From a virus, in the IMG/VR virus record IMGVR_UViG_3300034103_001788, positions 1 through 64,000 of that record: a stretch of 64,000 nucleotides of DNA, one strand, 5' to 3'. The notes under the pieces were generated by a model. The model did not search any database and was not told the DNA's origin. It saw only the letters and a list, made by a program, of their open reading frames with translations. The position numbers and the translations under genes are program-made. Below are positions 2,615 to 57,366 of the stretch, piece after piece (the first letter of the stretch is position 1; every line of letters starts with the position of its first letter).

Positions 2615-2665
2615 GTATATTCGTATATACGTAGGGGGAGTGGGTATATGGGTGCGGCATGCATA

Positions 2666-2676
2666 TATATTTATTG
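2666..2676 (+). promoter_or_regulatory. Late-type promoter motif (variant TATATTTATTG)
   Basis: The variant motif ends two bases before the ATG at 2679, which supports that internal start for the leader-family gene. Confidence 0.5.
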
Positions 2677-2678
2677 AT

Positions 2679-3077
2679 ATGGATACTTTTGACTTAAAAC
2701 AATTTTTAGTTGAAAATAAGTTAACAGAAAATTCTCGCTTAAATGAGATTAAAGTGGTTCCGGGAAACGTAGGTAAGAGATATTATGGTGTATTTAATTT
2801 AGAGGGTCATTATGGCCCTAGGGGAAATGAGTATGATGGTTATCCAATGTACATTATAGCTAATTCTAAACAAGAAATGGTTGATAAACTTAATTTAACA
2901 AACGTTTATCCAAAATATACACTTTCTGATATGGATGATAGTTACTCTGGTGGTGAAAAGCTGAATACTATTATAAATGATGATTGGGCTGTAGTTACTG
3001 ATGATATATCGGTTTTTAAAAGAATGTTAGATGATATAAAAAAAGATGGTAATCTTAAAGAACCTAAAAAGTTTTAA
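2679..3077 (+). CDS. Leader-family protein with DLKQFLVENKLTENS N-terminus
   Basis: The 132-residue product begins MDTFDLKQFLVENKLTENS, then RLNEIKVVPGNVG. This combination recurs in at least seven genes of this window. The N-terminal helix ending in LNE resembles a capsid-targeting peptide removed by a T4 gp21-type protease. The body (about 100 residues) is acidic in its C-terminal half and matches no family I know. The frame is open upstream to 2640, but the ATG at 2679 fits both the shared leader and the promoter motif. Inferred role: protein packaged in the capsid. Confidence 0.7.
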   Translation: MDTFDLKQFLVENKLTENSRLNEIKVVPGNVGKRYYGVFNLEGHYGPRGNEYDGYPMYIIANSKQEMVDKLNLTNVYPKYTLSDMDDSYSGGEKLNTIINDDWAVVTDDISVFKRMLDDIKKDGNLKEPKKF

Positions 3078-20819: not shown

Positions 20820-21152
20820 ATGGACAATTTTGACTTGAAACATTTTTTAGTAGAGAATAAAATAACTTCTAATTCTCATTTAAAAGAAATTAAAGCCATC
20901 CCTGGAAATACAGGAACTACAAGATTTATAACTTTAGAACAAATGCATTCTCTTTCAATTAATATTTTAAACCAATTAGAACAACTTCAACAAATAGTTA
21001 AAAAAATGGAAGATGGATCATCAACTGAAAATGAATTGGTAAAATTAAATACTATACCTGATAATGAATTTAGAGAATTAAGATTTATTTCAGATTATTT
21101 AAAGGAATTTTCTAGAACATTTGATGGTCTTAGAGATTATGGAATGGAATAA
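20820..21152 (+). CDS. Leader-family protein (110 aa)
   Basis: The N-terminus is MDNFDLKHFLVENKITSNS, followed by HLKEIKAIPGNTGTTRF. The helix ending in LKE is the predicted capsid-targeting and cleavage segment, and the product after cleavage would start IKAIPGNTG. The remaining 75 residues are helical and charged. The TGTTRF extension is shared with the next gene, pointing to recent duplication of the leader and the first mature residues. Confidence 0.7.
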   Translation: MDNFDLKHFLVENKITSNSHLKEIKAIPGNTGTTRFITLEQMHSLSINILNQLEQLQQIVKKMEDGSSTENELVKLNTIPDNEFRELRFISDYLKEFSRTFDGLRDYGME

Positions 21153-21161
21153 TATTTATAA
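21151..21161 (+). promoter_or_regulatory. Late-type promoter motif (AATATTTATAA)
   Basis: It overlaps the stop codon of the previous leader-family gene; two bases separate it from the ATG at 21164. Confidence 0.65.
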
Positions 21162-21163
21162 TT

Positions 21164-21922
21164 ATGGACAATTTTGACCTAAAGCAATTTTTAGTAAAAA
21201 ACAAATTAACTGAAAATTCTCGTTTAGGTGAAATTAAAACCACCCCTGGAAATACAGGAACTACAAGATTCGTAGACCTAAAAGTTGGTGATATCATTAC
21301 TCCTAAAATGTGGGACAAACAAAAATTTAAAGGTAATTATATGCCTTCACCTACAGATTATAATATTACAATACAAGACTCATATGTTATAAAAGACATG
21401 GAATTTGACCATGAAGGGTCTGAGGAAGAAGGATTTGATGATTGGTTTGTAGATTTAAGATCAACAACTACAGGTAAACCCTATAATACAGACCCTGTTT
21501 CTTTTCCCTATAAAACACTAGAAACCCAATTTCATTTAAATAGTCTTTTAAAAGATGGATATAAAATTGTTAGTCCTGATACTTTAGAAGAAATTAAAGC
21601 CGTCCCTAAAAATACAGGAATGAAAATAGATTTATTATCTTTTATTAAACAAAACCAATATGAAATCGCTAAGAAGATGGGGGCAGTCCGTTTAGAAGAT
21701 ATTGAGATGGATACTTTAAATAATCCATCAGCAATAGCACGGGTTAATATTGATCTTGAGGATGAGGAGGATGAAGTAGAAGGTGGAGGAGAATATATGT
21801 ATGGAGTATCATTTAGCTATCCTGAGGATGTAGATGATAATTTTAGAGGTGAAAATGGTGATGAACCAGAGGAAATAACAGTAGCAGGAAAAAAAATAAT
21901 GTATATTAATTATAATATTTAA
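21164..21922 (+). CDS. Leader-family protein with two tag sites (252 aa)
   Basis: The leader MDNFDLKQFLVKNKLTENS is followed by RLGEIKTTPGNTG, and a second tag, LEEIKAVPKNTG, lies at 21590-21619 (about residues 143-152). The protein would therefore be cut into a leader and two domains of roughly 115 to 120 and 105 residues if the tag marks protease sites. Domain 1 has a beta-rich pattern (VGDIITPKMWDKQKF), domain 2 is acidic. No enzymatic motif is visible. Confidence 0.7.
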   Translation: MDNFDLKQFLVKNKLTENSRLGEIKTTPGNTGTTRFVDLKVGDIITPKMWDKQKFKGNYMPSPTDYNITIQDSYVIKDMEFDHEGSEEEGFDDWFVDLRSTTTGKPYNTDPVSFPYKTLETQFHLNSLLKDGYKIVSPDTLEEIKAVPKNTGMKIDLLSFIKQNQYEIAKKMGAVRLEDIEMDTLNNPSAIARVNIDLEDEEDEVEGGGEYMYGVSFSYPEDVDDNFRGENGDEPEEITVAGKKIMYINYNI

Positions 21923-21925
21923 TAA
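21914..21925 (+). promoter_or_regulatory. Late-type promoter motif, divergent (AATATTTAATAA)
   Basis: This variant has one inserted base; it overlaps the upstream stop codon and ends two bases before the ATG at 21928. Confidence 0.45.
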
Positions 21926-21927
21926 CT

Positions 21928-22212
21928 ATGGATAATTTTGACTTAAAACATTTTTTAGTAGAAAATAAATTAACTGAAAATTCTCGTTTAAAAGAAATTA
22001 AAGCCGTCCCTGGAAATACCGGGATAAAAAATGCATTAGACTTTACATTTGAAGAGGCAAAAGGTAAAATGGTTTTCATAGAAATAGATGAAGATGGGGA
22101 TGACTCTAAAGAATACATGCAAATTGATACTTTAGATGATTATAACAGCTTAAAAAATGTTATTGCTAGTTATTCCAAATCAGGAATTTTAAGTGATTAT
22201 TATATTAACTAA
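21928..22212 (+). CDS. Leader-family protein (94 aa)
   Basis: The leader MDNFDLKHFLVENKLTENS continues with RLKEIKAVPGNTG. Only about 60 residues follow the predicted cut, acidic and without a known domain. It is the last of three consecutive leader-family genes and is followed by a strong terminator. Confidence 0.7.
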   Translation: MDNFDLKHFLVENKLTENSRLKEIKAVPGNTGIKNALDFTFEEAKGKMVFIEIDEDGDDSKEYMQIDTLDDYNSLKNVIASYSKSGILSDYYIN

Positions 22213-27456: not shown

Positions 27457-29043
27457 ATGTATTACATGCCTATATATAAACCTAAAGTAAAAAATGTTTA
27501 CGATAGTTTAACCTTACCTAGAAAAGAATCTATGATGGATGAACTAAGATTTAATAAAATGTATGCTGTATACAATTATGGGGAATTACCTGCGGATATA
27601 CAAAGAGAAGTTAATAAATATATTAGTGAATTAGACATAAAAGAAAGTGAAGATGATCAATCAATGCAACGCCAATTATTTGATCAAAATCCTTTAATTA
27701 TTTTTAAATCCAAAGAAGATTTAAATAAAGCAATTGAAAGTCTCCAGGACCCTAATAACTATGGATCTTATCTAAAACAATTTAGGTCACAAGACCCTAA
27801 ATTAGATAAATATATTAAAGGATTACTAGAACCTCCAGGCAATCCAGGCCAACGTAAAGCATTACTTAATAAACGCAGAGAGGAATTAAATGATCCTAAT
27901 TTTGAATGGACTAAAAATACTACAGATAATCAAGTACAATTAATTAAAAAGTATTTTGAAACTAAACCTAGCCGTTCTATACTTGATTTTGAAAAAGTAG
28001 ATGAAAACTCATTGATGTTTTCTTTATCTAAAAATACTTTAACTAAAATAAATATAGAAAAAATAGTATCTACTGTATTAAATAACGTTGGAATAACTAA
28101 TTATAAAATGACTACTAAAAAAACTCCCAAAGACATTACTAAAGAAAACTTATTAAAGGAATTAATAAGTAAAGTTGTTTCTGAGAAAAAAATGACTCCC
28201 GCTCAAAAGAAAAAACGTGGTGAAATATATGATGCGTTAATTGATAGTGGTATGCCTTCTAAAAAAGCAGGACCTATTGCTACCTCTCAAGCAATGAAAG
28301 AAGGTTTTCCTGACTTAAATGATGATGGTGAAACTACATACGCTGATGTTTTAATAGGTCGTGGAGTTAAAGCTAAAAATGAAGATATCGACTTAGGTCA
28401 CGAGGATGATGAGCCTCATATGTTAAAAGCAAATGTATATCGTATAGCTAAGTATGCTATTGAATTATACAAAATGCTTGACAAATATGACAAGATGAAT
28501 GTTGAAATTGACTTTCCTGATTGGTGGCAAGAAAAAATTCATTTGACTAAAGATTATTTAGTAAAAGCTAAACATTATCTAGATTTTGAAGAAAAAGAAC
28601 CTTCACTAGATGCTATGTTGGGAGAGGAAGAAAAAAAAAAAGGTAAAAACTACGTCCCTAAAACATTTACTTTCCTTAAAAGTATAAAAGATACTTTTGG
28701 TGAGAATATTAAATATTATGGTGGTAAAATGTATATTGATCCACTAGTTAAAACTGCTTTAGATAAAATAAAAAGAGGTAGAAAAACAGACAATACTACT
28801 ATAGGATATTCTGATTTGAATAAATTAATTGATACTAAAATGCCTCAACAAGTTGTAATGGCCTTTAAAAAAGGATTAGAAAATTCTAAATTAGTTGATA
28901 TAAATACTAAAAAAGGTACTAGACAAATGTTACCCCTTAATTTAAGTATTACTCAAGATGAAAATGGTAATTATCTAATCAAAAATCCACACTCAGATAA
29001 AATATCAGAAATTAAAGTTAAACCTGAAAATACAGGAATATAA
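27457..29043 (+). CDS. Multi-domain virion-type protein with EF-hand/dockerin-like loop
   Basis: The 528-residue product has several segments known from T4-like marine phages: TPAQKKKRGEIYDALIDSGM, an EF-hand-like loop DLNDDGETTYADVL (about 286-299), and a helical bundle from EDDEPHML to KAKHYLDFEEKE. It ends in ISEIKVKPENTGI, a tag positioned at the very C-terminus with nothing after it. That location suggests either loss of a downstream domain or a short tail removed by cleavage. A calcium-binding role for the loop is inferred. Confidence 0.65.
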   Translation: MYYMPIYKPKVKNVYDSLTLPRKESMMDELRFNKMYAVYNYGELPADIQREVNKYISELDIKESEDDQSMQRQLFDQNPLIIFKSKEDLNKAIESLQDPNNYGSYLKQFRSQDPKLDKYIKGLLEPPGNPGQRKALLNKRREELNDPNFEWTKNTTDNQVQLIKKYFETKPSRSILDFEKVDENSLMFSLSKNTLTKINIEKIVSTVLNNVGITNYKMTTKKTPKDITKENLLKELISKVVSEKKMTPAQKKKRGEIYDALIDSGMPSKKAGPIATSQAMKEGFPDLNDDGETTYADVLIGRGVKAKNEDIDLGHEDDEPHMLKANVYRIAKYAIELYKMLDKYDKMNVEIDFPDWWQEKIHLTKDYLVKAKHYLDFEEKEPSLDAMLGEEEKKKGKNYVPKTFTFLKSIKDTFGENIKYYGGKMYIDPLVKTALDKIKRGRKTDNTTIGYSDLNKLIDTKMPQQVVMAFKKGLENSKLVDINTKKGTRQMLPLNLSITQDENGNYLIKNPHSDKISEIKVKPENTGI

Positions 29044-35205: not shown

Positions 35206-37203
35206 ATGGTTAAGTTCCATTCATTATTAAAAGAGTTTATATTATCTGAGTTTTCTGATAAGATACTTAAGCAAATGCTTGGTTTATACAAGCAACAAAA
35301 ACCTAATTTAGATGATGAACAGATTCTTTACTACGTAAAACGGTTTGATCAAATCAAATCTGCATTAAAGAAAAAAGTTGAAGATAAAGATCCAACTGTG
35401 TTAGCGTTATTACCTAGAGATTTAAAATCTGATGATTCATTAAAAAAGAATTTTTATTTAGAAATTACTAGATATAAAAAATTTGATGAATTAGAAAAAT
35501 TAATTGATGGTGCTTTTTCTAAAGCTCAAGCTAAAAAAGAAAAAGAAGAATTAGTTAACAGTGCTGAAGCCGATGCTGATAAAATATATGATAAAGATAA
35601 TTTAGAAATATATAGAGGTGATGCTGAACATAAATGTATTAAGTATGGTAGAAACCAATACTATTCTTGGTGTATAGCTCGTACTCAAGGAAGTATGTAC
35701 TCTGGATATCGCTTCCAGGGTGTAGGTGGAAAAAGTAGAATGTTCTATTTTGTTTTTGATAGAACACGTCCTGATAGAAAAGACGGAGGTCGTTTTGATG
35801 ATCCTTACCATGCTGTAGTAATACATGCTATGGAAAACGGAGAATATGCTGTTACGGATGCCACTAACATGGGAGATAAACCCGCCAAAACGTGGGATGA
35901 TGTAATAAAATTATTACCTGCTGAATTAGGTAGTAAATTAAAAGGATTAGAATCTATATTTAAATATATTCCTCCAAGTAGTGAGGAAATTGCTCAAGCG
36001 GCAATGAAAGGTAAAAGATTATCTTTTGAACAATTTGCTGAATTATCATATGCTGATAAAAAAACATATGTTCAAGCAAACGCTAGTAACAGAAATATAA
36101 TTGATTCTAATATATTTAAATCTTTAGATTTAGATTTAAAAAATGAATGTATTAACTTTGGTAGAATATGTACTTTTGATGAATTAAAATCAAATGTTGG
36201 TCTTTTAAAAAGATATCCTGATTTTAGATTTACTAGATACCCTAAAGAACCATTACCATATCCTTTTATTCCTTATTTAAAAGATGATTTACAACAAAAA
36301 TATCTAGCGGAATTTGAAGATGAATACCTGACATTTGATGAGATTGAAAAATATTTTTCTGATACTGTAGTTAAGAATTATATTGATAAGCAAATTAAAA
36401 AGTTTGGATTTTTACCTCCCGAGGCTGAAAAATTCATGAGTTCATCTCAAAAACAAGTATACAACTTATATAGTATATCTTTTAAAGACATCAGTTATAG
36501 TACTAATCCAGATATTGAAAATAGTACAATGGCTCCCTTACGTTTAGTAAGTGTTGCCCCTATTTCAGCACAAACATACAATGATTTATCTACTCAAGAA
36601 CGTAAATTATATCTTGAATTAGTTGATAAATTATTTGAACAAGGTAACGGTGTAGAAAGACATAGTGATTTCTTCATGGGTGTACCTCAAATGATACAAA
36701 TTAACAATAAAGTATTTATGCTTTGCCCTACATCTACCAACTCAGATATATTTTCATTAATAGATGAAAATGGTAAAGTAGTTAAAGACAATATCTATAC
36801 TTTAGAAATTTATAAAAATGGACGTGAAATAGAATATGATTCTACACCTGCTGGACCCATATATAAAATTTCAGGACAAAGAACATGGTATTTACCTCAA
36901 ACCGAATATGATAGATTAAAACTATTAGATGAGGATGGGGACGAAATTAGATTTGATATGAACAACTTAGAAGAAAATAACGAATTAGTTAAAAAATTCC
37001 AAAAATTAGCAGGTATACAGACAGAAAATGAGGTTAAACCAGCTGTTGCTCCTCCAACAACTAAACCTAAACCTGGAACTAAAAATCCTTTAATTCCTCC
37101 TCCATCAGCACCTAAAAAAAGACCAGCTAAAGCTCTTAGTGAGGAAGATACACAAGAAATAATTGGAAAAATAATTCAACGTTTTAAAAAACTACGCCAA
37201 TGA
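35206..37203 (+). CDS. Large capsid-internal-type protein (665 aa)
   Basis: The start MVKFHSLLKEFILSEF is an amphipathic helix with Glu. Residues about 135-240 hold a domain with IYRGDAEHKCIKYGRNQYY, then WCIARTQGSMYSGYR, seen in other T4-like phage genomes but without a known function. Near residue 600, KKFQKLAGIQTENE resembles a short KLAGI motif also found at the scaffold C-terminus. The tail is Pro-rich. A role as an injected protein is inferred. Confidence 0.65.
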   Translation: MVKFHSLLKEFILSEFSDKILKQMLGLYKQQKPNLDDEQILYYVKRFDQIKSALKKKVEDKDPTVLALLPRDLKSDDSLKKNFYLEITRYKKFDELEKLIDGAFSKAQAKKEKEELVNSAEADADKIYDKDNLEIYRGDAEHKCIKYGRNQYYSWCIARTQGSMYSGYRFQGVGGKSRMFYFVFDRTRPDRKDGGRFDDPYHAVVIHAMENGEYAVTDATNMGDKPAKTWDDVIKLLPAELGSKLKGLESIFKYIPPSSEEIAQAAMKGKRLSFEQFAELSYADKKTYVQANASNRNIIDSNIFKSLDLDLKNECINFGRICTFDELKSNVGLLKRYPDFRFTRYPKEPLPYPFIPYLKDDLQQKYLAEFEDEYLTFDEIEKYFSDTVVKNYIDKQIKKFGFLPPEAEKFMSSSQKQVYNLYSISFKDISYSTNPDIENSTMAPLRLVSVAPISAQTYNDLSTQERKLYLELVDKLFEQGNGVERHSDFFMGVPQMIQINNKVFMLCPTSTNSDIFSLIDENGKVVKDNIYTLEIYKNGREIEYDSTPAGPIYKISGQRTWYLPQTEYDRLKLLDEDGDEIRFDMNNLEENNELVKKFQKLAGIQTENEVKPAVAPPTTKPKPGTKNPLIPPPSAPKKRPAKALSEEDTQEIIGKIIQRFKKLRQ

Positions 37204-39212
37204 AATTAACACAATTAGCTAAACAAGTAATTGAGGAAAAAATCCAACGTTTGAGTGAGGTAGATTACGAGGAAATATTTTCTCCTGAAACTATGTCTTT
37301 ATTAAAAAAACAATCTAAAGACGAATTAGTAAAACTAGGAAAAAATTTAAGACAAATGATGAGTACAGCTAGTACATTACTTCCTGAACTTATTGAAGCT
37401 GAACAACCTCATATTGATTTACTTGAGGAAATAGCTAAAGAAATTGTTACCCAAGCTTATCCTATCATTAAGTACTCAAAAATAAAAATCAATGCTAGTA
37501 TAGGTAAAGGTGAACTTCCCAAAGGAGCTCCGGGTGGTGAAGAAGAGGAAGAACAACCTGATGTTAATTTACCTCAACCTACTTTAACTGGTGAGAAAAA
37601 ACGCCGTATCATAAACGGAATTACTCAAGGTGCCTCTATCCGTGGCACTTTTGCATTCCTACTATTTAGAGAATATCTAGATGATCTAGGTGATGATATG
37701 ATTAACCGTTACAATGAGTTAATGAAATCTGTATTTGGTATTTATGATGATGAAAATGCTATTGCTCAGATGCTAGCCCTATTAGCTCAAGGTCAAAAAT
37801 CACAAGGAGGTGAATCTGAAGCTTACTATGATGAAGAAACAGAAACTCTTGTAATTAATGCTACAGCTATCTGTTTTCCAATGTTAGTTCACGAAATTGT
37901 AAAAGGATTATATGAAATATTATCTTTACAAGGATTTGGAGCCGATGCTGAACAAAATAAAAAGATTGTAAGTAAAGTAGATAAATTATCTAATGAACCC
38001 AATGATATACGTTTTGGTAAAATTATGTTTGATGCTATTAATAAAGTATATATTAAAAGTGAAATTAATGATACTAGAGTAAGAGATCTTTTTTTTCCTG
38101 AAATGTATAAAATAGATGATGAAACTGAATTTGTTAATTTTGTTGTAAATGCACTTGAAAATAAACTAACACCTACTCAAGAAAAATGGGCAATGGATAC
38201 TATGAGGGATATTGAGCGTAATTTAAAAGCTAATGATGCTAAAATTAACAAAGATATCCCTAATGATGAAGATGATAAAGACGTATTTACTGAAATTAAA
38301 GTTCAACCTAAAAACACAGGAGTAAGTAGTAAAATTAAAAAATTAGGTATAACTTTAGGAAAATACAATCTTAGTGGAAATGAAATAGGTAGCAAATATC
38401 CTTGGGTTTATGCCCAAGAAAAATTAAATCCTACTACTAAAAAGAATGCTGAATATTTTTTTAACAAACTAAATATAACACCTACAAAAATATCTATTGG
38501 TTTAGTATATAGAGGATCATTATCTGATGAAGAATTTAATAATTTGTCTGATATAGAAAAAATAAATAAATTAGAAATTGAATATAAAGCCAAATCATTT
38601 TATATTGAAGGAAACTATAAAGGTACTCCTATTATCATAGCTAGAAAAGAAACAAGATCTCCGATGGCCGGACAAACTTATTTAGTTTCCCCTTATACTA
38701 AATTAAAATTTAACCATATTAAAGACCTACCAGCTAATGAAATTTTAGCTGCTTTAAAAATACCTAATGATGGGAATGTTGATGAAATTAAAGTTCAACC
38801 TGGAAACACAGGAACCACCCCTCCTCTTACTCCAGAAGAAAAAGAATGGATTAAAAAACAATTAATGGGTTTTGATCCGGGACACACACCTGAAGGAAAC
38901 CCTGATGAACCTTTAATCTATACTTTTATTGATAGAGATAATATAGAAGATGATATAGAAAATGAATATATGACCTCTAAAGACTTAGAACTTTTTGATT
39001 CTATTTATAGAAAATTAAAAGGCAGAATTTATACTCTTAATATCGGTAGTAACGATCAAGTAGATGATTACCCCCAACTACGAGATAGTGTGGTAAAATC
39101 GGAGGATGGACCTGGATTAACTGTAACTTGGTCTGATTGGGATGATGATGGAAATCTTTTTGGCGCTTTTGATAAAACTACAGGAAAATATATTAAATAC
39201 TCTGATTTATAA
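37200..39212 (+). CDS. Predicted capsid-internal polyprotein with degenerate zincin motif
   Basis: The 670-residue product starts MKLTQLAKQVIEEKIQ. An N-terminal region of about 370 residues contains LVHEIVKGLYEI (HEIVK at 231-235), which resembles HExxH with the second His lost. Two tags follow (EIKVQPKNTG at 38292-38321 and EIKVQPGNTG at 38784-38813). The last module (PEEKEWIKKQL, then EYMTSKDLELFDSIYRKLKG) is clearly paralogous to the middle module of the polyprotein at 23992. This shows shuffling of the same module between two genes 13 kb apart. Confidence 0.7.
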   Translation: MKLTQLAKQVIEEKIQRLSEVDYEEIFSPETMSLLKKQSKDELVKLGKNLRQMMSTASTLLPELIEAEQPHIDLLEEIAKEIVTQAYPIIKYSKIKINASIGKGELPKGAPGGEEEEEQPDVNLPQPTLTGEKKRRIINGITQGASIRGTFAFLLFREYLDDLGDDMINRYNELMKSVFGIYDDENAIAQMLALLAQGQKSQGGESEAYYDEETETLVINATAICFPMLVHEIVKGLYEILSLQGFGADAEQNKKIVSKVDKLSNEPNDIRFGKIMFDAINKVYIKSEINDTRVRDLFFPEMYKIDDETEFVNFVVNALENKLTPTQEKWAMDTMRDIERNLKANDAKINKDIPNDEDDKDVFTEIKVQPKNTGVSSKIKKLGITLGKYNLSGNEIGSKYPWVYAQEKLNPTTKKNAEYFFNKLNITPTKISIGLVYRGSLSDEEFNNLSDIEKINKLEIEYKAKSFYIEGNYKGTPIIIARKETRSPMAGQTYLVSPYTKLKFNHIKDLPANEILAALKIPNDGNVDEIKVQPGNTGTTPPLTPEEKEWIKKQLMGFDPGHTPEGNPDEPLIYTFIDRDNIEDDIENEYMTSKDLELFDSIYRKLKGRIYTLNIGSNDQVDDYPQLRDSVVKSEDGPGLTVTWSDWDDDGNLFGAFDKTTGKYIKYSDL

Positions 39213-39214
39213 TA

Positions 39215-40219
39215 ATGATTAAAAAATCACAAATAAAAGAAGTATTACTTAAATATATTGTTCCTTTACAAAAACAATACCCCGATTTTTACTTAGGTGG
39301 AAGTCTTGCTTTAATATTACAAAAACATATTCCTGCTCGTGATGTTAAAGATTTAGATATAATATCTCCCGTTTCTTTTGGTGATTTACATGAAACAAAA
39401 TTCCCTTACAAGGGTATGGTGACTAGTAAAAAAACTTACCATATACGCGAAATAAAAACATGTTTAGATTTTTTTCACAATCCTAAAGCAAAATATGTTA
39501 CCGCTAATATTCAAGGACATACTATAAAATTATCTCCTATAGATGAAATAGTTCATGCTAAAGAAAATAAAATTTGGAGTCCTGTATATAAGAACAAACA
39601 AAAAGATTTAAAACAAATTATTAAAGAAATTTTTAGTGAAATTAAAGCTCAACCCGTTAATAGATTAATTAAACCTACCAAAAAAAAAACCATAACTGAT
39701 GAACCATATATAGATATAGATACTTCTTTTATAGAAGACTACATTTTAGATTATGGTGAAATTAGTTATGATACTATTCAATTTTTTAATTTTATTAATG
39801 TTAAAGCGAATGAAAACACAATACGCGACGCCGAATATATTAATCATATTTTAAATGGAGACTATAAGCTTTATTTTAATGAAGATAAAAAAGAAATTGA
39901 TTATATTCTAACATTAAATGATCCTTTAAATATAAAAGATTATGCTCGAGATAGAGCAGAAATGTTATCTGATAATCCTGAAGACATAGACTTTCTTGCA
40001 GAAGAAATTATGTTGGCTATAGAAACTATCCAAGACAATATTCCTAAATATATTGCCGCTAAAAAAATATTAAAAGATAAGTTTACCATTATTAGTAATG
40101 ATGAATTTAGTGTTATACTAACTTCTGATTCTAATGGCCATTCATTTCTTTATACTATGATAGAAAAACAAGATGGTTATTTTAATAAAAATGGAGAAAT
40201 AGTAATTTATACTACATAA
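39215..40219 (+). CDS. Nucleotidyltransferase-like protein with degenerate tag (334 aa)
   Basis: After the helix MIKKSQIKEVLLKYI, residues 27-50 give LGGSLALILQKH and ARDVKDLDIIS, the GGS...DxD core of the nucleotidyltransferase fold (Gly28-Gly29-Ser30, Asp46, Asp48). Such folds add nucleotides to RNA, protein or drugs and occur in toxin systems. A degenerate tag EIKAQPVN begins at 39638, separating the enzyme from an acidic C-terminal domain of about 180 residues. It may be another injected enzyme. Confidence 0.65.
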   Translation: MIKKSQIKEVLLKYIVPLQKQYPDFYLGGSLALILQKHIPARDVKDLDIISPVSFGDLHETKFPYKGMVTSKKTYHIREIKTCLDFFHNPKAKYVTANIQGHTIKLSPIDEIVHAKENKIWSPVYKNKQKDLKQIIKEIFSEIKAQPVNRLIKPTKKKTITDEPYIDIDTSFIEDYILDYGEISYDTIQFFNFINVKANENTIRDAEYINHILNGDYKLYFNEDKKEIDYILTLNDPLNIKDYARDRAEMLSDNPEDIDFLAEEIMLAIETIQDNIPKYIAAKKILKDKFTIISNDEFSVILTSDSNGHSFLYTMIEKQDGYFNKNGEIVIYTT

Positions 40220-41718: not shown

Positions 41719-41952
41719 ATGACAACAAAATACGAATTTACAAAGAAATTGAAAAAAGCAGATGGTACAGTTGCTTATGTGTGGGAAGGTAAACTTCACA
41801 ATTGGGAAGGTCCTGCTTTAATCACTCCTGAAGGTAAAAAAGAATATTATATTCATGGAATCCAGTATACTGAGGAAAACTATAAAGAAGCATTGCGAAA
41901 TAGAACTGGTATCCCTCCTATGAAAGATCCACGATTTAAAACTAAGTTTTAG
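41719..41952 (+). CDS. Small MORN-like repeat protein (77 aa)
   Basis: The sequence AYVWEGKLHNWEGPALITPE, then YYIHGIQYTEENY, matches the HNxxGPAxxxxxGxxxYxxxG repeat common in phages and giant viruses. Only one or two units are present. It starts two bases after the oxidoreductase stop and probably shares its transcript. No function is known. Confidence 0.6.
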   Translation: MTTKYEFTKKLKKADGTVAYVWEGKLHNWEGPALITPEGKKEYYIHGIQYTEENYKEALRNRTGIPPMKDPRFKTKF

Positions 41953-42994: not shown

Positions 42995-43918
42995 ATGGAT
43001 TCATTTGATTTAAAGCAATTTCTAGTTAAGAACAAACTTACTGAAAACAGCAAGTTAAATGACGTAAAAATCTACCCTGGAAATACAGGACAATTTCATA
43101 GTTTGAACCCGTTTACCTTATTAACTAAGAAAACATTATTTGCTGATTTCATCTATCGTGTAGGTGGTAACAATAGTGACGATATAAATTCAAGATTTGC
43201 TAGAAGTATAAGCGAACTTTTAAATTTATTAAAACGTACAAATACACTCCAGGGAACCCATACAATAGATGATATATTTGAATATGAAGAAATGAATGAT
43301 GTTGAGGATGGAGATGAATCTTATGCGAGCTCTGCAGAATCATTAGCATTTTTTCAAAAATTACCCCTTCATTTTAAATTTATTGTTACACATAATATTA
43401 ATGGTTATAATGAAAGTTTTGAGATTACTAAAATAGGATCTAATAGTTTTACTACAGAAGAAATAGATAATGAATTAGATGAAATTACTATCAATCCTCA
43501 AAGTACGGGAATAAAGTTAGGAGGAGATTCACCGTTTTTTTCTTTTGTAAAAAATAATAAACAAGAAATAGCATCTCTTAATCCTGTATTTACTGATATC
43601 ATAATGAATAGTGGAGAGGAAAAACTTGATAGAAAATCAATATACTTAGAAGACATAGCATATCCTGATTATACTTATGAAGACTTTATCAAAGATTGGA
43701 AATTATATAATCCTGAAGTAATAGTATTAGGAGACGAATTAATGTCTGTTTTTGTTGTAAATATGTCTCTTCCTTTAAAGTTTGCTAATGTTTTAACATC
43801 AAATGATTATACATTTTTTGGTACTAGACCTAATTCTGAAAATGCACTTAAACCTTACACTGTAGCTAATAAAAAAATATATATAACTTGGGGTATTCCT
43901 GACCCAGGATCAAATTAG
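42995..43918 (+). CDS. Leader-family protein with two tag sites (307 aa)
   Basis: The leader MDSFDLKQFLVKNKLTENS is followed by KLNDVKIYPGNTG and, at about residues 163-173, by LDEITINPQSTG. The two predicted domains are each about 130 to 140 residues long and acidic. The second tag has drifted (TINPQST), so it may mark an old module junction. No enzymatic motif is visible. Confidence 0.7.
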   Translation: MDSFDLKQFLVKNKLTENSKLNDVKIYPGNTGQFHSLNPFTLLTKKTLFADFIYRVGGNNSDDINSRFARSISELLNLLKRTNTLQGTHTIDDIFEYEEMNDVEDGDESYASSAESLAFFQKLPLHFKFIVTHNINGYNESFEITKIGSNSFTTEEIDNELDEITINPQSTGIKLGGDSPFFSFVKNNKQEIASLNPVFTDIIMNSGEEKLDRKSIYLEDIAYPDYTYEDFIKDWKLYNPEVIVLGDELMSVFVVNMSLPLKFANVLTSNDYTFFGTRPNSENALKPYTVANKKIYITWGIPDPGSN

Positions 43919-43924
43919 GAAATT

Positions 43925-44986
43925 ATGGATAACTTTGACTTAAAGCAATTTTTAATTGAGAACAAACTTACTGAAAACAGCAAGGTAAATGAAGCTTGGA
44001 CTAAAGAACGTAGAGAACAAGATCCTGAAGGTTATGCTAAGTACTTAGAAAAAGCTAAACAAGCTCAAAAACAATACTACGAAAAAAATCGAGAAAAAGC
44101 TAAACAATACTACGAAAAAAATCGAGAAAAAAATCGAGAGTACGCTAAACAATCTGCTAAACAATACTACGAAAAAAACCCAGAAAAAGTTAAACAACGT
44201 ACTAACCAGTATAATAAACAACATAGAGAAAAACTTAAACAAGCTGCTAAGCAATACAAAGAAAAAAACCTAGAAAAATTAAAACAAGCAGCTAACCAGT
44301 ATGCTAAACAACATAGAAAAAAATTAAAACAAGATCCTGAAGCCTATGCTAAGTATTTAGAAAAAGCTAACCAGTATAATAAACAACATAGAGAAAAATT
44401 AAAACAAGATCCTGAAGTATATGCTAAGTATTTAGATTATCAAAAACAATATGCTAAACAAAACAAAGAAAAATATGATTCTTATGTAAAACAATCATCT
44501 GATTTTTTCTATAATACTATCACTAACAACCCAAGTCCTGAATTAAAAAACATTAAAGATAACCCTAAACTTTTAACTAAACTTTACTCTGAGTTTATTA
44601 AAAAAGCTAAACAACAATATAAATCTAAAAATAAAGACTTTTCATTTATGGTTACTGAAAACAGCAAGTTAAATGAAATTAAAGCTACTCCTAAAAATAC
44701 GGGGGTAGGTAAACAAAGATTTTCACTAGAAAAATGGGAAAATTTAGGCGAAGATTTTGAGTACGATAGTGATGATGATATCTATATTTACTACGGTATA
44801 TTATTTTTTAATGATCCTGAACTTAAAGAACTAAGCTCCGAAATTCAGTACAATGACTATACAGAGGAAGAATGGGAAACTATAGAGGAAAAAATAGAAA
44901 CTTTAATAGAAATTCTAAATAAAAATAATATAGAGTGGAGTCAACGTACAACTAGTAATTGGATTAACTTTACTATCTATTATTAA
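43925..44986 (+). CDS. Leader-family protein with Lys-rich YEKN repeats (353 aa)
   Basis: MDNFDLKQFLIENKLTENS is followed by a long basic region (about 28-190) built of units like AKQYYEKNREK and NQYNKQHREKLK, with several DPExYAKYLEKA units. Such repeats form long basic helices that should bind DNA. A second leader fragment TENSKLNEIKATPKNTG appears near residue 240, followed by an acidic domain of about 100 residues. If cut there, a DNA-condensing part would be freed from an acidic part. T4 internal proteins IPI-III are basic too, which fits. Confidence 0.7.
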   Translation: MDNFDLKQFLIENKLTENSKVNEAWTKERREQDPEGYAKYLEKAKQAQKQYYEKNREKAKQYYEKNREKNREYAKQSAKQYYEKNPEKVKQRTNQYNKQHREKLKQAAKQYKEKNLEKLKQAANQYAKQHRKKLKQDPEAYAKYLEKANQYNKQHREKLKQDPEVYAKYLDYQKQYAKQNKEKYDSYVKQSSDFFYNTITNNPSPELKNIKDNPKLLTKLYSEFIKKAKQQYKSKNKDFSFMVTENSKLNEIKATPKNTGVGKQRFSLEKWENLGEDFEYDSDDDIYIYYGILFFNDPELKELSSEIQYNDYTEEEWETIEEKIETLIEILNKNNIEWSQRTTSNWINFTIYY

Positions 44987-44996
44987 AAGATAAAAT

Positions 44997-45296
44997 ATGA
45001 AACTTCAACCAGGTAATACCGGCTTATCTAATTTAAATAGACCCGTTGATATTGTATCTCCTGGGGAAGATGGTGAAGATGGTTTTTATTATGTTGATTT
45101 AGATAAATTAAAAAAAGAATTACAATTTAAATACTTTAAAGATTTATTTGATTCACCTAAAACATTTAATGATGGTTTAATTAATTATTTAAATGATATT
45201 ATAGATTTTGATGGGCCTGACAGTTATAAAAATATGACTTTAAAAGAATTAATAACAGATTTTAAAGCATGGCTTCAAAATTTTACTACAGATTAG
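44997..45296 (+). CDS. Tag-initial protein lacking the leader (99 aa)
   Basis: The product begins MKLQPGNTGLSNLN, so its first residue coincides with the position after the predicted cut in leader-family proteins (I-K-x-x-P-x-N-T-G). The body is acidic and resembles the short mature parts of its neighbours. It probably arose by fission of a longer protein or by loss of a leader. It has no promoter motif of its own and may depend on the upstream gene. Confidence 0.6.
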   Translation: MKLQPGNTGLSNLNRPVDIVSPGEDGEDGFYYVDLDKLKKELQFKYFKDLFDSPKTFNDGLINYLNDIIDFDGPDSYKNMTLKELITDFKAWLQNFTTD

Positions 45297-45341: not shown

Positions 45342-45701
45342 ATGGATAATTTTGATTTAAAGCAATTTTTAGTTGAGAATAAATTAACTGAAAATTCTCG
45401 TTTAATTGAGATTAAAGCTATCCCCCGAAATACAGTAATAGACAAATTTAAAAATTGGTCACCTTATAAAAACATGAGCAATAAAAAATATTATGAAAGT
45501 TTTAAAAAATTTGTTAGATTTAATTTAAAACAACACAACGTTATAGATGAACACATTGAAATATATTTAGATGAAATTTTGAAGGCGGATGATGTAAAAG
45601 CATATGAAGGAATTAGTGATGAAAATTTATATAAAGATTTTCTTGAATATAAAAATGATCAAATTGAGCAAGATGAGGATTTATATGATTTCGATTTTTA
45701 A
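45342..45701 (+). CDS. Leader-family protein (119 aa)
   Basis: MDNFDLKQFLVENKLTENS continues with RLIEIKAIPRNTVIDKF. The tag has lost the terminal Gly, but LIE is still a proper cut site. The body of about 85 residues is helical and acidic. It is followed by a terminator. Confidence 0.7.
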   Translation: MDNFDLKQFLVENKLTENSRLIEIKAIPRNTVIDKFKNWSPYKNMSNKKYYESFKKFVRFNLKQHNVIDEHIEIYLDEILKADDVKAYEGISDENLYKDFLEYKNDQIEQDEDLYDFDF

Positions 45702-45771: not shown

Positions 45772-46302
45772 ATGAAAATAGGTTTTTGTGGAACAATGAG
45801 TGTTGGTAAATCAACATTAGTAAATGCATTAAGTGAATTACCACAATTTGAAGGTTATCATTTTGCAACTGAACGTTCAAAATACTTACGTGATTTAGGT
45901 ATTCCGTTGAATACTGATTCAACATTAAAAGGTCAAACAATATTTTTAGCTGAACGTTGTACTGAATTACTTTATGATAAAGTTATTACTGATAGAACAG
46001 TAATTGATGTTATGGCATTTACATTAAATGCTTCTTCTATTTTTTATAATGATAAACACAAATTTGAAAACTATGCCAAGTTACTCATTTCAGAGTATGA
46101 TTACATATTTTATGTATCACCTGAAGGTGTTGAAATAGAAGATAATGGTGTTCGTGAAACAAATTCTGAATATAGACAAACAATTGATAAAACAATTAAC
46201 TATATTATTAATGCATATAAACCACTAATTAACAAATTTACCATTATTTCAGGTACAACAGATGAACGTGTACAAAAAGTATTAGAAACAATAAAGTTCT
46301 AA
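45772..46302 (+). CDS. P-loop ATPase/kinase, NadR-like (AAA_28 type)
   Basis: The 176-residue product starts directly with a Walker A motif, GTMSVGKST (residues 7-15), and has FATERSKYLRDLGI and VITDRTVIDVMAF segments of the NadR/AAA_28 kinase group. These proteins phosphorylate nucleosides such as nicotinamide riboside, though for most phage members the substrate is not known. Lack of a leader and an early-type promoter set it apart from the injected-type kinase at 33449. Confidence 0.75.
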   Translation: MKIGFCGTMSVGKSTLVNALSELPQFEGYHFATERSKYLRDLGIPLNTDSTLKGQTIFLAERCTELLYDKVITDRTVIDVMAFTLNASSIFYNDKHKFENYAKLLISEYDYIFYVSPEGVEIEDNGVRETNSEYRQTIDKTINYIINAYKPLINKFTIISGTTDERVQKVLETIKF

Positions 46303-52462: not shown

Positions 52463-52915
52463 ATGAATAACAAACGCTACCTAAAAGTAAAAATGCTAAA
52501 CCTCCAACAAGAGGTACAAGCACTTTTATCTAAAGGTGAAAATTTAGGACCTGGTGTTTTTGACGCTATTGCAGACGATATAGAAAAGTTAACAACTCAA
52601 ATTATTGACTTACGTAAAAAATCTCAACCTACAACAGCAGCTGATACTGAATCTCCTGAAGCTGAAGTTAAAGAATCTACCCCTCTTAGCTTAGAAGGTT
52701 TATATAAAGAAATTAAAGCTATACCAGGTAGTACGGGATTAGGGAATAAAGATAATGAAGATGTAGAAATGTATTATTTTGTAGATGAAGATGGTAATGT
52801 TAATAAATTAGGTAAATTAAATCCTGATGAACTTAAAAAAGCCGAAGCTGAATTACAAAATGATGGATTTATAATGTCTGAAGAAGATTTTAGAGAATTA
52901 AATAATATAGAATAA
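52463..52915 (+). CDS. Prohead-core-type protein with internal tag (150 aa)
   Basis: An N-terminal helical domain (about 1-75) is joined to a short acidic domain by YKEIKAIPGSTG (52709-52738), the same tag as in the accessory block. This is the only tag copy inside the head gene cluster. It places the tag system next to the protease gene. No other motif is visible. Confidence 0.65.
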   Translation: MNNKRYLKVKMLNLQQEVQALLSKGENLGPGVFDAIADDIEKLTTQIIDLRKKSQPTTAADTESPEAEVKESTPLSLEGLYKEIKAIPGSTGLGNKDNEDVEMYYFVDEDGNVNKLGKLNPDELKKAEAELQNDGFIMSEEDFRELNNIE

Positions 52916-52916
52916 A

Positions 52917-53771
52917 ATGAGACAACAAACTCTACAAGAACAATACAATTTAATAGTTGAAGGAAAAGGTAATGCAACTGCTTTTCATAAGCAAGCATTA
53001 AAACAATTCCCTCATTTATTTACTGCTCAATCTTCATTTGACCAAGTAGTAAATGTATTAAAACAAAAATCAATCATCAGCGAAATGGTAGCTCAAGGAT
53101 TAGTATCTAATTCAAGTGGACCTAATTTCTTTGAAATCTTCAACACTAATATGGCTAAATTGAATGAGGAAGCTAAAGCTGAAGAAAAGAAACCAACTAA
53201 AGATGTAACTGATTTAGAAACTAAAGGATTTGATTATAAAAATAAGAAAAATATTGATAACCAAAGTGGTGCTGAATTCTTATTAGGATTTTATGTTGAG
53301 TCAAGAAACGCTAAAAACGTTGATAAAACAGTAGAAGAAATTAGAGATATCGTAGTTAAAAACTTAGCTAAAGACCAATTACACTATGTTAAATCAGGTC
53401 AATTTGGTGTTGAAGGTTTAGGCTATACTGAGGAAGCTCCAGGCTTAGGTAAAACTAAAGAAGTAAAAGGCAAATATGCCTCTTCGGGAATGGAACCAGT
53501 TAAATTAAAAGAATCATACGGTAATGAAATTGATGTTCCTACTCCCTCTATGTTACTCCAAATGGATAAAGAAAGGCTTGGGAAAGTTATAGATAAAATG
53601 GATAATAATGATATGCAAGCCTTTAAACGCAAATTTGACCAGGCCGAAGTATCTATTAAAAATGCTCTTAAAGCTAAATTAGAATCATTTGGCCTTGATA
53701 AAGCATTTAATTTAGGCGAATCTAAAGACACTTTAGTTAAAGAAATCTTAAAACGATTAACCGGAAAATAA
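52917..53771 (+). CDS. Predicted internal head protein (284 aa)
   Basis: It starts MRQQTLQEQYNLIVEGKGNA, a possible targeting segment with IVE. The sequence SGAEFLLGFYVESRNAKN and the helical C-terminus ending LVKEILKRLTG recall a protein seen just before gp21 in marine T4-like phages. One base is shared with the protease start. Role is inferred from order: a core protein. Confidence 0.6.
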   Translation: MRQQTLQEQYNLIVEGKGNATAFHKQALKQFPHLFTAQSSFDQVVNVLKQKSIISEMVAQGLVSNSSGPNFFEIFNTNMAKLNEEAKAEEKKPTKDVTDLETKGFDYKNKKNIDNQSGAEFLLGFYVESRNAKNVDKTVEEIRDIVVKNLAKDQLHYVKSGQFGVEGLGYTEEAPGLGKTKEVKGKYASSGMEPVKLKESYGNEIDVPTPSMLLQMDKERLGKVIDKMDNNDMQAFKRKFDQAEVSIKNALKAKLESFGLDKAFNLGESKDTLVKEILKRLTGK

Positions 53772-54388
53772 TGAGTAAAACCCTCCTTATAGAAACCATT
53801 ACCTTTGTGCCTCAACCTGTTAAACTAACAGAAGGGTTAAAGTCCAAATCCGGCAACATGATTGTTGAAGGTATTTTGGCTACCCCTGAGGTAAAAAATG
53901 GAAATGGTCGCTATTATTCTAAAGATTTATGGGATCGGGAAATTAAAAAATACATGAACCTGATTAAAGACCGTCGTGCATGTGGTGAATTAGATCACCC
54001 CGAAACTCAAGTTATTAACTTAAAAAACGTATCTCACAACATTATTGATATCTGGTGGGATGGAGGTAACGTGATGGGCAAATTAGAAATACTACCTACC
54101 CCATCAGGTAATATTGTTAAAGCATTAATTGATTCAGGTATTTCCGTTGGTGTATCTTCTCGTGGTATGGGAAGTTTAAAACCAATGGGTGAAAATATGA
54201 TGGAAGTACAAGATGATTTTGAATTATTGTGTTGGGACTTTGTATCAACTCCTTCTAATCCTGGTTCATATATGATGACTGTTGGATTAAACGAAAGTAT
54301 ACAACATAATCCTACTAAAAATTACTCTAGAGTAAATAATATAATTAGAGATATTTTATGCTCTAATGGAACTTGCCCCGTATTTTAA
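53771..54388 (+). CDS. gp21: Prohead protease, gp21-like
   Basis: The 205-residue product has CGELDHPE (His76) and ISVGVSSRGMG (Ser129 or Ser130), the His and Ser of the U9/S78 prohead protease family. T4 gp21 has 212 residues and cuts after (L/I)xE in the scaffold, capsid and internal proteins. It would be the enzyme acting on the many LxE sites listed here. It directly precedes the scaffold and capsid genes as in T4. Confidence 0.92.
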   Translation: MSKTLLIETITFVPQPVKLTEGLKSKSGNMIVEGILATPEVKNGNGRYYSKDLWDREIKKYMNLIKDRRACGELDHPETQVINLKNVSHNIIDIWWDGGNVMGKLEILPTPSGNIVKALIDSGISVGVSSRGMGSLKPMGENMMEVQDDFELLCWDFVSTPSNPGSYMMTVGLNESIQHNPTKNYSRVNNIIRDILCSNGTCPVF

Positions 54389-54590: not shown

Positions 54591-55691
54591 ATGAACAATC
54601 GAGAATTATTCAAAGAAGCTATTGCTGATGCAAAAGCTGTCAAAGAAGCAGCTATTGCGAACGCAAAAGTTGCCCTTGAGGAAGCCTTCGCTCCATTTTT
54701 GAGAGAAAAGCTTACTCAAAAACTTTCAGAAATGGAAGAAGAAACCTATGAATCTAAAGACGAAATGTATGAAGACGAATATGGCGACTCTACAGACAAA
54801 GACTTTTTACAAAATGAAATGTCTTATGATGAAGAAACTATAGAAGCCCCAGTAGATGAGGTGGATATGATGGGCGACGAAACTATTGACGAACTTAACC
54901 TTGACGAATTGTTAGCTGAATTGGAATTAGAAGAAGAAGCATCTGAAGAAGTATCTGAAGAAGAATTAAACGAAGCTAAAGAAGACGAAGAGGAAAAGGA
55001 AGAAGAAGAAGAAGAAGACGAGGACGAAGAAATTGACATTACCGACGTTGAATCATTGAAAAAAATCATCGAAGATGAAATTGAAAAAATGATCGAATCA
55101 GGTGAATTGCAAGCTGGTCCTGAGTACGAAGGTGAAGAAGAAGAAATGATGGGTGATGAAGAAGAGATGATGGGTGACGAAGAAGTAGTAGATGGTGAGG
55201 AAATGATGGGTGATGAAGAAGAAATTGAAGAAGATTTTAGCATCGACGAATTATTAGCTGAACTTAAGAAAAAAGGTAAAAAAGAAATGCCTAAAAAAGA
55301 AGAAGCTAAGAAAAAAGAAGATGATAAAGCTAAAAAAGAACTTGATGAAGCTGTTAAAGTAATCAAAGCTCTTAAAGGTGAACTTCAAGAAATGAAACTC
55401 TTCAACGCTAAATTGCTTTACACTAACAAAATCTTCAAAGCTCGTAGCTTAAACGAATCACAAAAAGTAAAAGTTTTATCAACTTTTGATAAAGCTACCA
55501 CTATTAAAGAAGTAGAACTTGTATATGAAACTTTATCTAGTTCTTTCTCAACTGCTAAGAAACAAGTAGTTAAAGAATCATTAGGATTTGCTTCTAAACC
55601 TACTGGAGTGTCTCAACACCAACAAAAACAAATGATTGTTGAAGAAGATGCAATGGTAACAAGATTTAAAAAATTAGCAGGATTAATTTAA
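54591..55691 (+). CDS. gp22: Prohead core scaffold, gp22-like
   Basis: The 366-residue, very acidic and helical product has long Glu/Asp runs and three EEMMGDEE-type repeats (about 185-210), then Lys/Glu helices, and ends in RFKKLAGLI. T4 gp22 is also acidic, helical (269 residues) and degraded by gp21 during maturation. Several LxE sites (for example LLAELE) are present. The position between gp21 and gp23 is diagnostic. It is longer than T4 gp22 due to the acidic region. Confidence 0.85.
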   Translation: MNNRELFKEAIADAKAVKEAAIANAKVALEEAFAPFLREKLTQKLSEMEEETYESKDEMYEDEYGDSTDKDFLQNEMSYDEETIEAPVDEVDMMGDETIDELNLDELLAELELEEEASEEVSEEELNEAKEDEEEKEEEEEEDEDEEIDITDVESLKKIIEDEIEKMIESGELQAGPEYEGEEEEMMGDEEEMMGDEEVVDGEEMMGDEEEIEEDFSIDELLAELKKKGKKEMPKKEEAKKKEDDKAKKELDEAVKVIKALKGELQEMKLFNAKLLYTNKIFKARSLNESQKVKVLSTFDKATTIKEVELVYETLSSSFSTAKKQVVKESLGFASKPTGVSQHQQKQMIVEEDAMVTRFKKLAGLI

Positions 55692-55728: not shown

Positions 55729-57366
55729 ATGGAATTACAATCTTTATTGGAAAGCGCCTCTCCTTATAAGGCAGTCCAAAACGATGCAGCTCGTTTAGCT
55801 AACAAATGGTCTAAGACCGGCCTTTTAGAAGGTATTAGCTCTGATCACGAGAAAAACAACATGTCTATGATTCTTGAAAACCAAGCTAAACAGTTGGTTA
55901 ACGAATCATCTCTTTCTGGCGCAGGTGTAGCTGGAGGTTCATTTACAACAGGTGCTGGTGAACAGTGGGCTGGTGTGGCTTTGCCTTTGGTTCGTAAGGT
56001 GTTCGGTCAGATCGCTTCTAAAGAATTAGTAAGCGTTCAACCTATGAACTTGCCTTCAGGTCTTGTATTCTACTTGGATTTCCAATACGGTACTACTAAG
56101 ACTCCTTTCACCGCTGGTCAATCTATGTACGGTGACAGTGGATCTGCTCTTCCTTTCGGTAACACTAATACTGGTGGTACTTACGGGGCTGGCCGTTTCG
56201 GTTACTCTATTAACAATACTGGATCAGTAATGTCTGCAACTGTAACTGCTTCTGGTAGTGGTATGAGTTGGGCTGACTTCCGCTTTGATGATAATTTTAG
56301 TTCATCATTTGCTGGTTATGCTAAGTTGCAAGTTACCTTGCCTTCAACTACTGACTTCACTGCTGCTCGTGCTTTCACTATTGCCTCTGGTTCAACTTTG
56401 TTAGTATCTAACAACGTACCTGCTTTCACAACTGATAACGGTACTAGTACAGTTACTTTCATTGTTCCTACTTCTTCAATAGCTAACAACATTAACTTAA
56501 CCCACACTAACTGTTCTGTATCTTACAGTTTAGCTCCTGCTGATAACAAGCGTGGTGATTTCGAAGATGGTAACACTGCTTTGAACGCTGGTAACAGCTC
56601 TATTTCAATTCCTGAAATCAACGTACAAATGAAATCAGATTCTATCGTTGCTAAAACTCGTAAGTTGAAAGCCGTATGGACTCCTGAATTCGCTCAAGAT
56701 TTGAACGCTTACCATTCATTGGATGCTGAAGCTGAATTGACTTCAGTTATGAGTGAGTACATTTCTTTGGAAATTGATTTGGAAATCTTGGATATGTTGA
56801 TCGACGGTGCTGCCGCTGGTACTGAGTACTGGTCAGCTGCTAACAACCAAGTAATCAACACTGCTGGTACTGCTTTCGTAGCTAACTCTTCAGCATTCTT
56901 CAACACTCAAGGTGGTTGGTTCCAAACTTTGGGAACTAAAATCCAAAAATTATCTAACATCATCCACCAGAAAACATTGCGTGGTGGTGCTAACTTCATG
57001 GTAGTTGCTCCTCAAGTTGCTACTGTGTTGGAATCAATTCCAGGATACGCTGCTGACACTAACGGTGATGTAACCAAAATGAATTACAACTTCGGTGTAA
57101 TGAAAGCTGGTTCTATTAACAGCCACTTGAAAGTTTACAAGAACCCATACATGACCGAAAACACTATTTTGTTAGGTTTCCGTGGTAGCCAATTCTTAGA
57201 AACTGGTGCTGTGTTTGCTCCTTACATTCCTTTGATCATGACTCCTTTGATCTACGATCCTAACACCTTCACTCCTCGTAAAGGTTTGTTGACTCGTTAT
57301 GCCAAGAAAATGGTTCGTCCTGAATTCTATGGTAAGATCTATGTTAGTGGCTTGAACACTATCTAA
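55729..57366 (+). CDS. gp23: Major capsid protein, gp23-like
   Basis: The 545-residue product aligns in pattern with T4 gp23 (521 residues): ELVSVQPMNLPSGLVFYLDF corresponds to the VQPMNSPTGQVFALRA region, and the N-terminal pro-segment ends in QLVNE at Glu59, where gp21 is expected to cut, near the T4 position 65. Further on it has IDLEILDMLIDGA and an RKGLLTRYAKKMVRPEFYG C-terminus typical of the family. It uses many C-ending codons (AAC, TTC) and TTG, unlike its neighbours, which suggests selection for high expression. Confidence 0.93.
   Translation: MELQSLLESASPYKAVQNDAARLANKWSKTGLLEGISSDHEKNNMSMILENQAKQLVNESSLSGAGVAGGSFTTGAGEQWAGVALPLVRKVFGQIASKELVSVQPMNLPSGLVFYLDFQYGTTKTPFTAGQSMYGDSGSALPFGNTNTGGTYGAGRFGYSINNTGSVMSATVTASGSGMSWADFRFDDNFSSSFAGYAKLQVTLPSTTDFTAARAFTIASGSTLLVSNNVPAFTTDNGTSTVTFIVPTSSIANNINLTHTNCSVSYSLAPADNKRGDFEDGNTALNAGNSSISIPEINVQMKSDSIVAKTRKLKAVWTPEFAQDLNAYHSLDAEAELTSVMSEYISLEIDLEILDMLIDGAAAGTEYWSAANNQVINTAGTAFVANSSAFFNTQGGWFQTLGTKIQKLSNIIHQKTLRGGANFMVVAPQVATVLESIPGYAADTNGDVTKMNYNFGVMKAGSINSHLKVYKNPYMTENTILLGFRGSQFLETGAVFAPYIPLIMTPLIYDPNTFTPRKGLLTRYAKKMVRPEFYGKIYVSGLNTI

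What the first reader, a model, noticed from the sequence alone, without database searches (positions are those of the whole stretch)
44997..45296. A gene that begins exactly at the predicted mature end
The protein starts MKLQPGNTG, so its Met replaces the Ile that would be exposed after cleavage in the leader-family proteins. It looks like a module made without leader, supporting the view that IKxxPxNTG is a natural N-terminus.
Basis: partly seen in the sequence, partly recalled or inferred. Interest (0 to 1): 0.6.

Follow-up and report, generated by a model that had tools for sequence, protein, structure and literature searches.

The report
Phage protein born without its leader
In a T4-like virus of (probably) Bacteroidota, a family of cargo proteins carries a removable N-terminal address label, and one gene, conserved in at least four related viruses, starts exactly where that label would be cut off, which suggests that the exposed end has a job of its own.

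Summary
ORF 44997-45296 (99 aa) starts MKLQPGNTG. An in-frame TAA two codons upstream rules out an earlier start. Three identical records and three diverged orthologues (85, 82 and 71% identity) start at the same residue (MK[L/A]QPxNTG) behind differing upstream DNA, and none carries a leader, so it is not a frameshift artefact.

The window is a T4-type phage with an S77 prohead protease. All 17 other IKxxPxNTG copies in it follow E (16) or D (1), usually as hydrophobic-x-E, as gp21-type cleavage requires. Near-identical modules swap between leader-first and polyprotein positions exactly at E|I in related contigs. The leader, MxNFDLKxFLVENKLTxNSRLxE, is a widespread capsid-targeting-like sequence (84 distinct proteins), mostly used without IKxxPxNTG.

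The leaderless gene keeps every defining motif residue despite many synonymous changes, which supports a role for the motif at a mature N-terminus. The C-terminal half weakly resembles a small leaderless gene near the same kinase in wider relatives, so it may be a resident gene that gained the motif rather than cargo that lost its leader. Cleavage, packaging and function are inferred; virion proteomics is needed.

The parts
44997..45296 (+). leaderless gene, 99 aa, MKLQPGNTG...; the finding
44997..45023 (+). MKLQPGNTG head: the IKxxPxNTG motif with Met for Ile
44991..44993 (+). in-frame TAA that closes the frame immediately upstream
43925..44986 (+). upstream neighbour: leader + repeat domain + LNE|IKATPKNTG module; stops 10 nt before the leaderless ATG
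45342..45701 (+). downstream neighbour: leader MDNFDLKQFLVENKLTENSRLIE|IKAIPRNT
42995..43918 (+). leadered two-module protein (LND|VKIYPGNTG, LDE|ITINPQSTG)
37200..39212 (+). polyprotein with internal FTE|IKVQPKNTG and VDE|IKVQPGNTG modules
39215..40219 (+). protein with FSE|IKAQPVNRL module; the same module ends the 722-aa polyprotein of L019
20820..21152 (+). leadered module HLKE|IKAIPGNTG
21164..21922 (+). leadered two-module protein (LGE|IKTTPGNTG, LEE|IKAVPKNTG); the second module is a leadered single protein in L030
21928..22212 (+). leadered module LKE|IKAVPGNTG; it is the second polyprotein module in L030
23992..26493 (+). polyprotein with LDE|IKLQPKNTG, TNE|IKVQPKNTG, VDE|IKVQPKKTG modules
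2640..3077 (+). leadered protein, leader Met at 2679, RLNE|IKVVPGNVG
52463..52915 (+). protein with C-terminal LYKE|IKAIPGSTG module
53771..54388 (+). S77 prohead protease (T4 gp21 type)
   Evidence: PF03420 E=1.1e-28; phrog_207
55729..57366 (+). major capsid protein gp23 type
   Evidence: PF07068 E=6.6e-72
45772..46302 (+). P-loop nucleotide kinase-like gene; marks the locus in wider relatives

Best explanation
This is a genuine, stably leaderless gene. It encodes directly, in the infected cell, a small acidic protein whose N-terminus (Met-Lys-x-Gln-Pro-x-Asn-Thr-Gly) imitates the end that the phage's S77 prohead protease is predicted to expose (Ile-Lys-x-x-Pro-x-Asn-Thr-Gly) on its packaged cargo proteins. 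The leadered relatives are predicted to enter the prohead through a T4-style capsid-targeting leader and to be trimmed after hydrophobic-x-E; fused modules would be separated the same way. The leaderless protein has no such signal. It is most likely made late from the same operon (its ATG lies close behind a cargo gene) and works in the cytoplasm of the producing cell without cleavage. Because the motif is kept without any cleavage site, the motif probably acts on the mature protein, for example as a docking tail, rather than as part of the protease recognition site. Shown: start, leaderlessness, conservation, E|I seam, protease gene. Inferred: cleavage, packaging of relatives, cytoplasmic role, docking function.
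For: Start fixed in four sequence variants with differing upstream DNA and no leader. Defining motif codons show no amino-acid change, while synonymous changes in the motif are frequent (2-5 of about 6 sites per pair). All 17 other window copies have E/D at P1, and 16 of 17 have L/I/V/F/Y at P3. S77 protease present. T4 gp21 cuts after L/I-X-E, and IP propeptides are capsid-targeting sequences (PMC9026906). Four module changes exactly at the seam between window and relatives. The leader is conserved in 84 distinct proteins; its first downstream E is preceded by L/I/V at P3 in 60 of 73 non-motif proteins, and the sequence beyond is variable, so leader function does not need IKxxPxNTG. Met1 should be retained before Lys2 (general knowledge of methionine aminopeptidase).
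Against: No protein data exist for this clade. Only four distinct orthologues are known, so constraint on the nine-residue motif is measured on few changes. Motif retention could partly reflect common descent. The structure model is poor (pLDDT 64, residues 1-10 at 37) and no fold or family match names a function. Some giant-phage ejection proteins are packaged without processing (PMC5694885), so lack of a leader does not prove lack of packaging.
Confidence: 0.5

Rival explanations
1. A resident non-cargo gene gained the motif. The C-terminal domain descends from a small leaderless gene near the kinase in wider relatives (MKxSKxKLNEYIxLYLNDLEDYG...), and recombination replaced its 5' end with an IKxxPxNTG-type head. 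It never had a leader. This concerns origin and is compatible with the best explanation for function.
For: Family profile hits all four orthologues at the same region, close behind its own members; 0, 0, 0 and 1 of 5000 shuffles reach their scores. hhalign P = 3.1e-6, probability 88%, over 23 columns. The top non-orthologue of the orthologue profile among 8425 ORFs is L092:4149-4283, directly 5' of the kinase. That short form and the orthologues both lack the two middle helices of the family.
Against: Only about 23 columns align and the E-values are 0.0006-0.2. An unrelated ORF in L010 scores higher than the orthologues. No intermediate with both forms was found.
Confidence: 0.4
2. A cargo module that lost its leader, by change of the Ile codon after the cleavage site to ATG or by recombination, and is now decaying or inherited passively. 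The motif is a fossil.
For: Motif and position match cargo modules exactly; the gene lies within a cargo cluster.
Against: Purifying selection and motif constraint across four variants. No leader remnant upstream in any frame. Motif codons differ from the near-uniform cargo codons, so the loss would be old. No leadered orthologue.
Confidence: 0.2
3. The protein is packaged in the head after all, by binding another packaged protein or by an unrecognised internal signal, and joins the same set of injected proteins.
For: Unprocessed ejection proteins are known in giant phages (PMC5694885). In three of four genomes the ATG is within 10 nt of, or overlaps, a leadered cargo gene.
Against: The preceding cargo gene is not the same in all genomes, against a fixed carrier. 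No CTS-like sequence was recognised.
Confidence: 0.25
4. Frameshift or assembly artefact hiding a true upstream start.
For: None found.
Against: Identical in three further records and same start in three diverged ones; stop codons upstream.
Confidence: 0.01

Closest known systems
T4 internal head proteins IPI, IPII, IPIII and Alt with capsid-targeting sequence, cut by gp21 (PMC9026906)
   Same: The leadered neighbours have a short N-terminal leader ending in L/I-x-E in a genome with an S77 protease and gp23-type capsid.
   Different: The finding itself has no leader and no cleavage site. T4 internal proteins do not share a motif such as IKxxPxNTG (own knowledge). Here modules are also fused in series with a seam at each joint.
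Unprocessed ejection proteins of giant phages such as SPN3US (PMC5694885)
   Same: Head cargo can exist with and without protease processing.
   Different: In this case the unprocessed protein begins with the motif that processed ones would expose. Packaging is unknown.
Polyvalent proteins of phages and plasmids (PMC5512222)
   Same: Several domains strung together and probably delivered, in some cases released by proteolysis.
   Different: Those rely on embedded peptidase domains. Here separation is predicted to be done by the head protease at a repeated seam.
Small YLNDLEDYG-type gene family near the kinase in wider relatives (alignment A4, unnamed)
   Same: Leaderless small protein in the neighbourhood of the kinase; similar C-terminal segment.
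   Different: No IKxxPxNTG head; homology covers about 23 residues with weak significance.

Membership tests
T4-type capsid-targeted internal protein | N-terminal capsid-targeting leader | tested here: not met
   No leader in any of four variants; in-frame stop upstream
T4-type capsid-targeted internal protein | L/I-x-E cleavage site before the mature part | tested here: not met
   Protein begins at the P1' position
T4-type capsid-targeted internal protein | Genome encodes an S77 prohead protease | tested here: met
   PF03420 E=1.1e-28
T4-type capsid-targeted internal protein | Present in virions and ejected | not testable with these tools
   No proteomic data
IKxxPxNTG module family of this clade | IKxxPxNTG motif at module start | tested here: met
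   MK[L/A]QPxNTG in all four variants, Met for Ile
IKxxPxNTG module family of this clade | E/D immediately before the motif | tested here: not met
   17 of 17 other window copies have it; this one has none
YLNDLEDYG small gene family | Significant homology | tested here: inconclusive
   E 0.0006-0.2, hhalign probability 88%
YLNDLEDYG small gene family | Location near the nucleotide kinase | tested here: inconclusive
   Directly 5' in L005, L019 and some family members; one leadered gene intervenes in the window

The most novel reading that the evidence does not exclude
IKxxPxNTG is a functional N-terminal tail that the head protease exposes on packaged, injected proteins. The leaderless gene supplies the same tail on a protein made inside the cell, so the phage presents one tag by two routes, by injection at the start of infection and by direct synthesis later, to the same partner.
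Probability: 0.25. Interest if true: 0.65.

Novelty: new variant of a known kind. Interest (0 to 1): 0.45.

Why it matters
A gene that starts at the predicted cut is a natural control. It separates what the protease needs from what the mature protein needs, and points to a function for the exposed end. The surrounding system, in which cargo modules move between single leadered genes and polyproteins at exactly the protease seam, makes targeting and maturation of phage head cargo testable by simple mass spectrometry, and shows how gene fusion and fission can be neutral when a head protease separates the products.

Tried and rejected
Upstream start or frameshift: rejected by the stop codons and six other records. 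Leadered orthologue: none in three protein-based and one leader-motif scan of IMG/VR, none in GTDB genomes, no significant hit in phage records (best E=9). Other leaderless MKxxPxNTG genes: two pattern scans gave only this gene plus hits judged to be chance. Function by family: Pfam, PHROGs and PADLOC give nothing usable; PDB sequence search E=0.3 to an unrelated enzyme; fold searches no match, with a low-confidence model for this protein. The C-terminal similarity was tested with shuffles and kept only as a weak lead. A fixed carrier protein for packaging was considered and set aside because the preceding gene varies.

Full report
Observation. The ORF at 44997-45296 begins ATG AAA CTT CAA CCA GGT AAT ACC GGC (MKLQPGNTG). 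In its frame the preceding codons are TAA and AAT, so it cannot extend upstream. The preceding gene ends 10 nt earlier in another frame. An IMG/VR search gave three identical records and three diverged orthologues, L005 (85%), L006 (82%) and L019 (71%). All start at the same Met with MKLQPGNTG, MKAQPVNTG or MKLQPANTG. The upstream DNA differs: gap 10, -4 (ATGA overlap), 33 and 3 nt, and the preceding gene is shared only by L005 and L019. No frame upstream contains a leader or an E before the motif. The start is therefore real and stable.

Context. The record is a 70-kb virus fragment with T4-type head genes: terminase, portal, S77 prohead protease (PF03420, E=1.1e-28) and gp23 capsid protein. 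The nearest isolates are Flavobacterium phages 'immuto' (60% in TerL). No phage record gave a significant match to the 99-aa protein.

The seam. A loose search of the window finds 18 motif copies on the + strand and one on the - strand. Apart from the finding, all 17 have E (16) or D (1) directly before the motif, and 16 have L, I, V, F or Y at P3. T4 gp21 cuts after L/I-X-E, and the propeptides of the T4 internal proteins are capsid-targeting sequences (PMC9026906). Relatives show the seam in action. The module after LEE| in the 21164 protein is a leadered single protein in L030 (93% identical). The leadered 21928 module is the second module of a polyprotein in L030 (99%). The module after FSE| in 39215 ends a 722-aa polyprotein in L019 (84%). 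The motif that ends the 27457 protein (ISE|IKVKPENTGI*) continues as a full module in L030. Such changes leave the predicted mature products intact, as expected if a protease separates them. Cleavage itself is not shown.

The leader. An alignment of leaders found 78 loci. Across 84 distinct proteins the leader FDLKKFLVENKLTSNS holds 2-4 bits per column. The first E after it, used as the anchor, is preceded at P3 by L, I or V in 60 of 73 non-motif proteins, and the sequence beyond it is below 1 bit per column. Because the E was chosen as anchor, only its context, not its presence, is evidence. Most of these proteins lack IKxxPxNTG, so leader function does not require the motif, which is largely confined to this clade (a related IKAIPGKVG occurs in L148).

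What the leaderless gene adds. It has neither leader nor cleavage site, yet keeps K2, Q4, P5, N7, T8 and G9 in all four variants. Synonymous changes in the motif are frequent (2-5 of about 6 sites per pair), and amino-acid changes fall only at the two x positions. The following linker (residues 10-33) is less conserved and varies in length. This favours a role of the motif on the mature protein over a role in protease recognition. The sample is small.

Origin. A profile of the orthologues has as best outside hit a 45-aa ORF directly 5' of the same kinase in L092 (E=0.02). That ORF belongs to a small leaderless family near the kinase in many relatives. The family profile recovers all four orthologues (E 0.0006-0.2; 0, 0, 0 and 1 of 5000 shuffles as good), and hhalign gives P=3.1e-6, probability 88%, over 23 columns. 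The helices predicted for both fit a deletion of the middle part. This is a lead, not a proof. If right, a resident gene received the motif head. Its motif codons (CCA GGT AAT ACC GGC) also differ from the nearly uniform cargo codons (CCT ... ACA/ACG GGA/GGG), so it is not a recent copy.

Mechanism. Most likely the protein is synthesised late in the infected cell and acts there uncut, presenting Met-Lys where processed cargo would present Ile-Lys. Packaging without a leader remains possible, since some giant-phage ejection proteins are unprocessed (PMC5694885). No fold, family or defence database names a function.

Verdict. Observation confirmed; interpretation partly supported. A new variant within the known T4 theme of targeted and trimmed head cargo. 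Its value is as a natural control that separates the protease site from the mature end.

Noticed in passing
window 20820-22212 and L030:184-1250: Reciprocal rearrangement of three cargo modules between leadered and polyprotein positions, exactly at the E|I seam.
   Followed up: yes
window motif copies listed: Cargo motif copies are more uniform at DNA level than codon usage predicts: Thr8 is never ACT (51% genome-wide) and ACG is 4 of 15 (2% genome-wide); Gly9 is nearly always GGA/GGG. Recent duplication or recombination at the motif DNA is likely.
   Followed up: partly
L135-L212 (78 loci): The leader MxNFDLKxFLVENKLTxNSRLxE is shared by dozens of otherwise unrelated proteins across many phages, a large reservoir of predicted head cargo.
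   Followed up: partly
L153:3989 and L161:688: Homologous bodies (67% identical) behind two different leader types, NFDLKKFLVENKLTANSRLLE and MKRSELVQLIKEELNIQ, suggesting interchangeable leaders.
   Followed up: partly
window 54591-55691: The acidic protein before the capsid gene, scaffold-like by position, ends in RFKKLAGLI, resembling another leader type (MNKEFLKMQKLAGLITES) in related contigs such as L068 and L122; possibly a shared core-binding element.
   Followed up: no
window 29011-29043: The 27457 protein ends right after the motif (ISE|IKVKPENTGI*), while L030:8401 continues into a full module: a lost module in the window.
   Followed up: partly
window 41719-41952: Small HNWEGPALI-repeat protein gene conserved next to the kinase in most wider relatives; function unknown.
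   Followed up: no
window 23992-26493: N-terminal part of a cargo polyprotein matches DUF5661 (E=3e-13) and holds a HEMIHH metallopeptidase-like motif.
   Followed up: no
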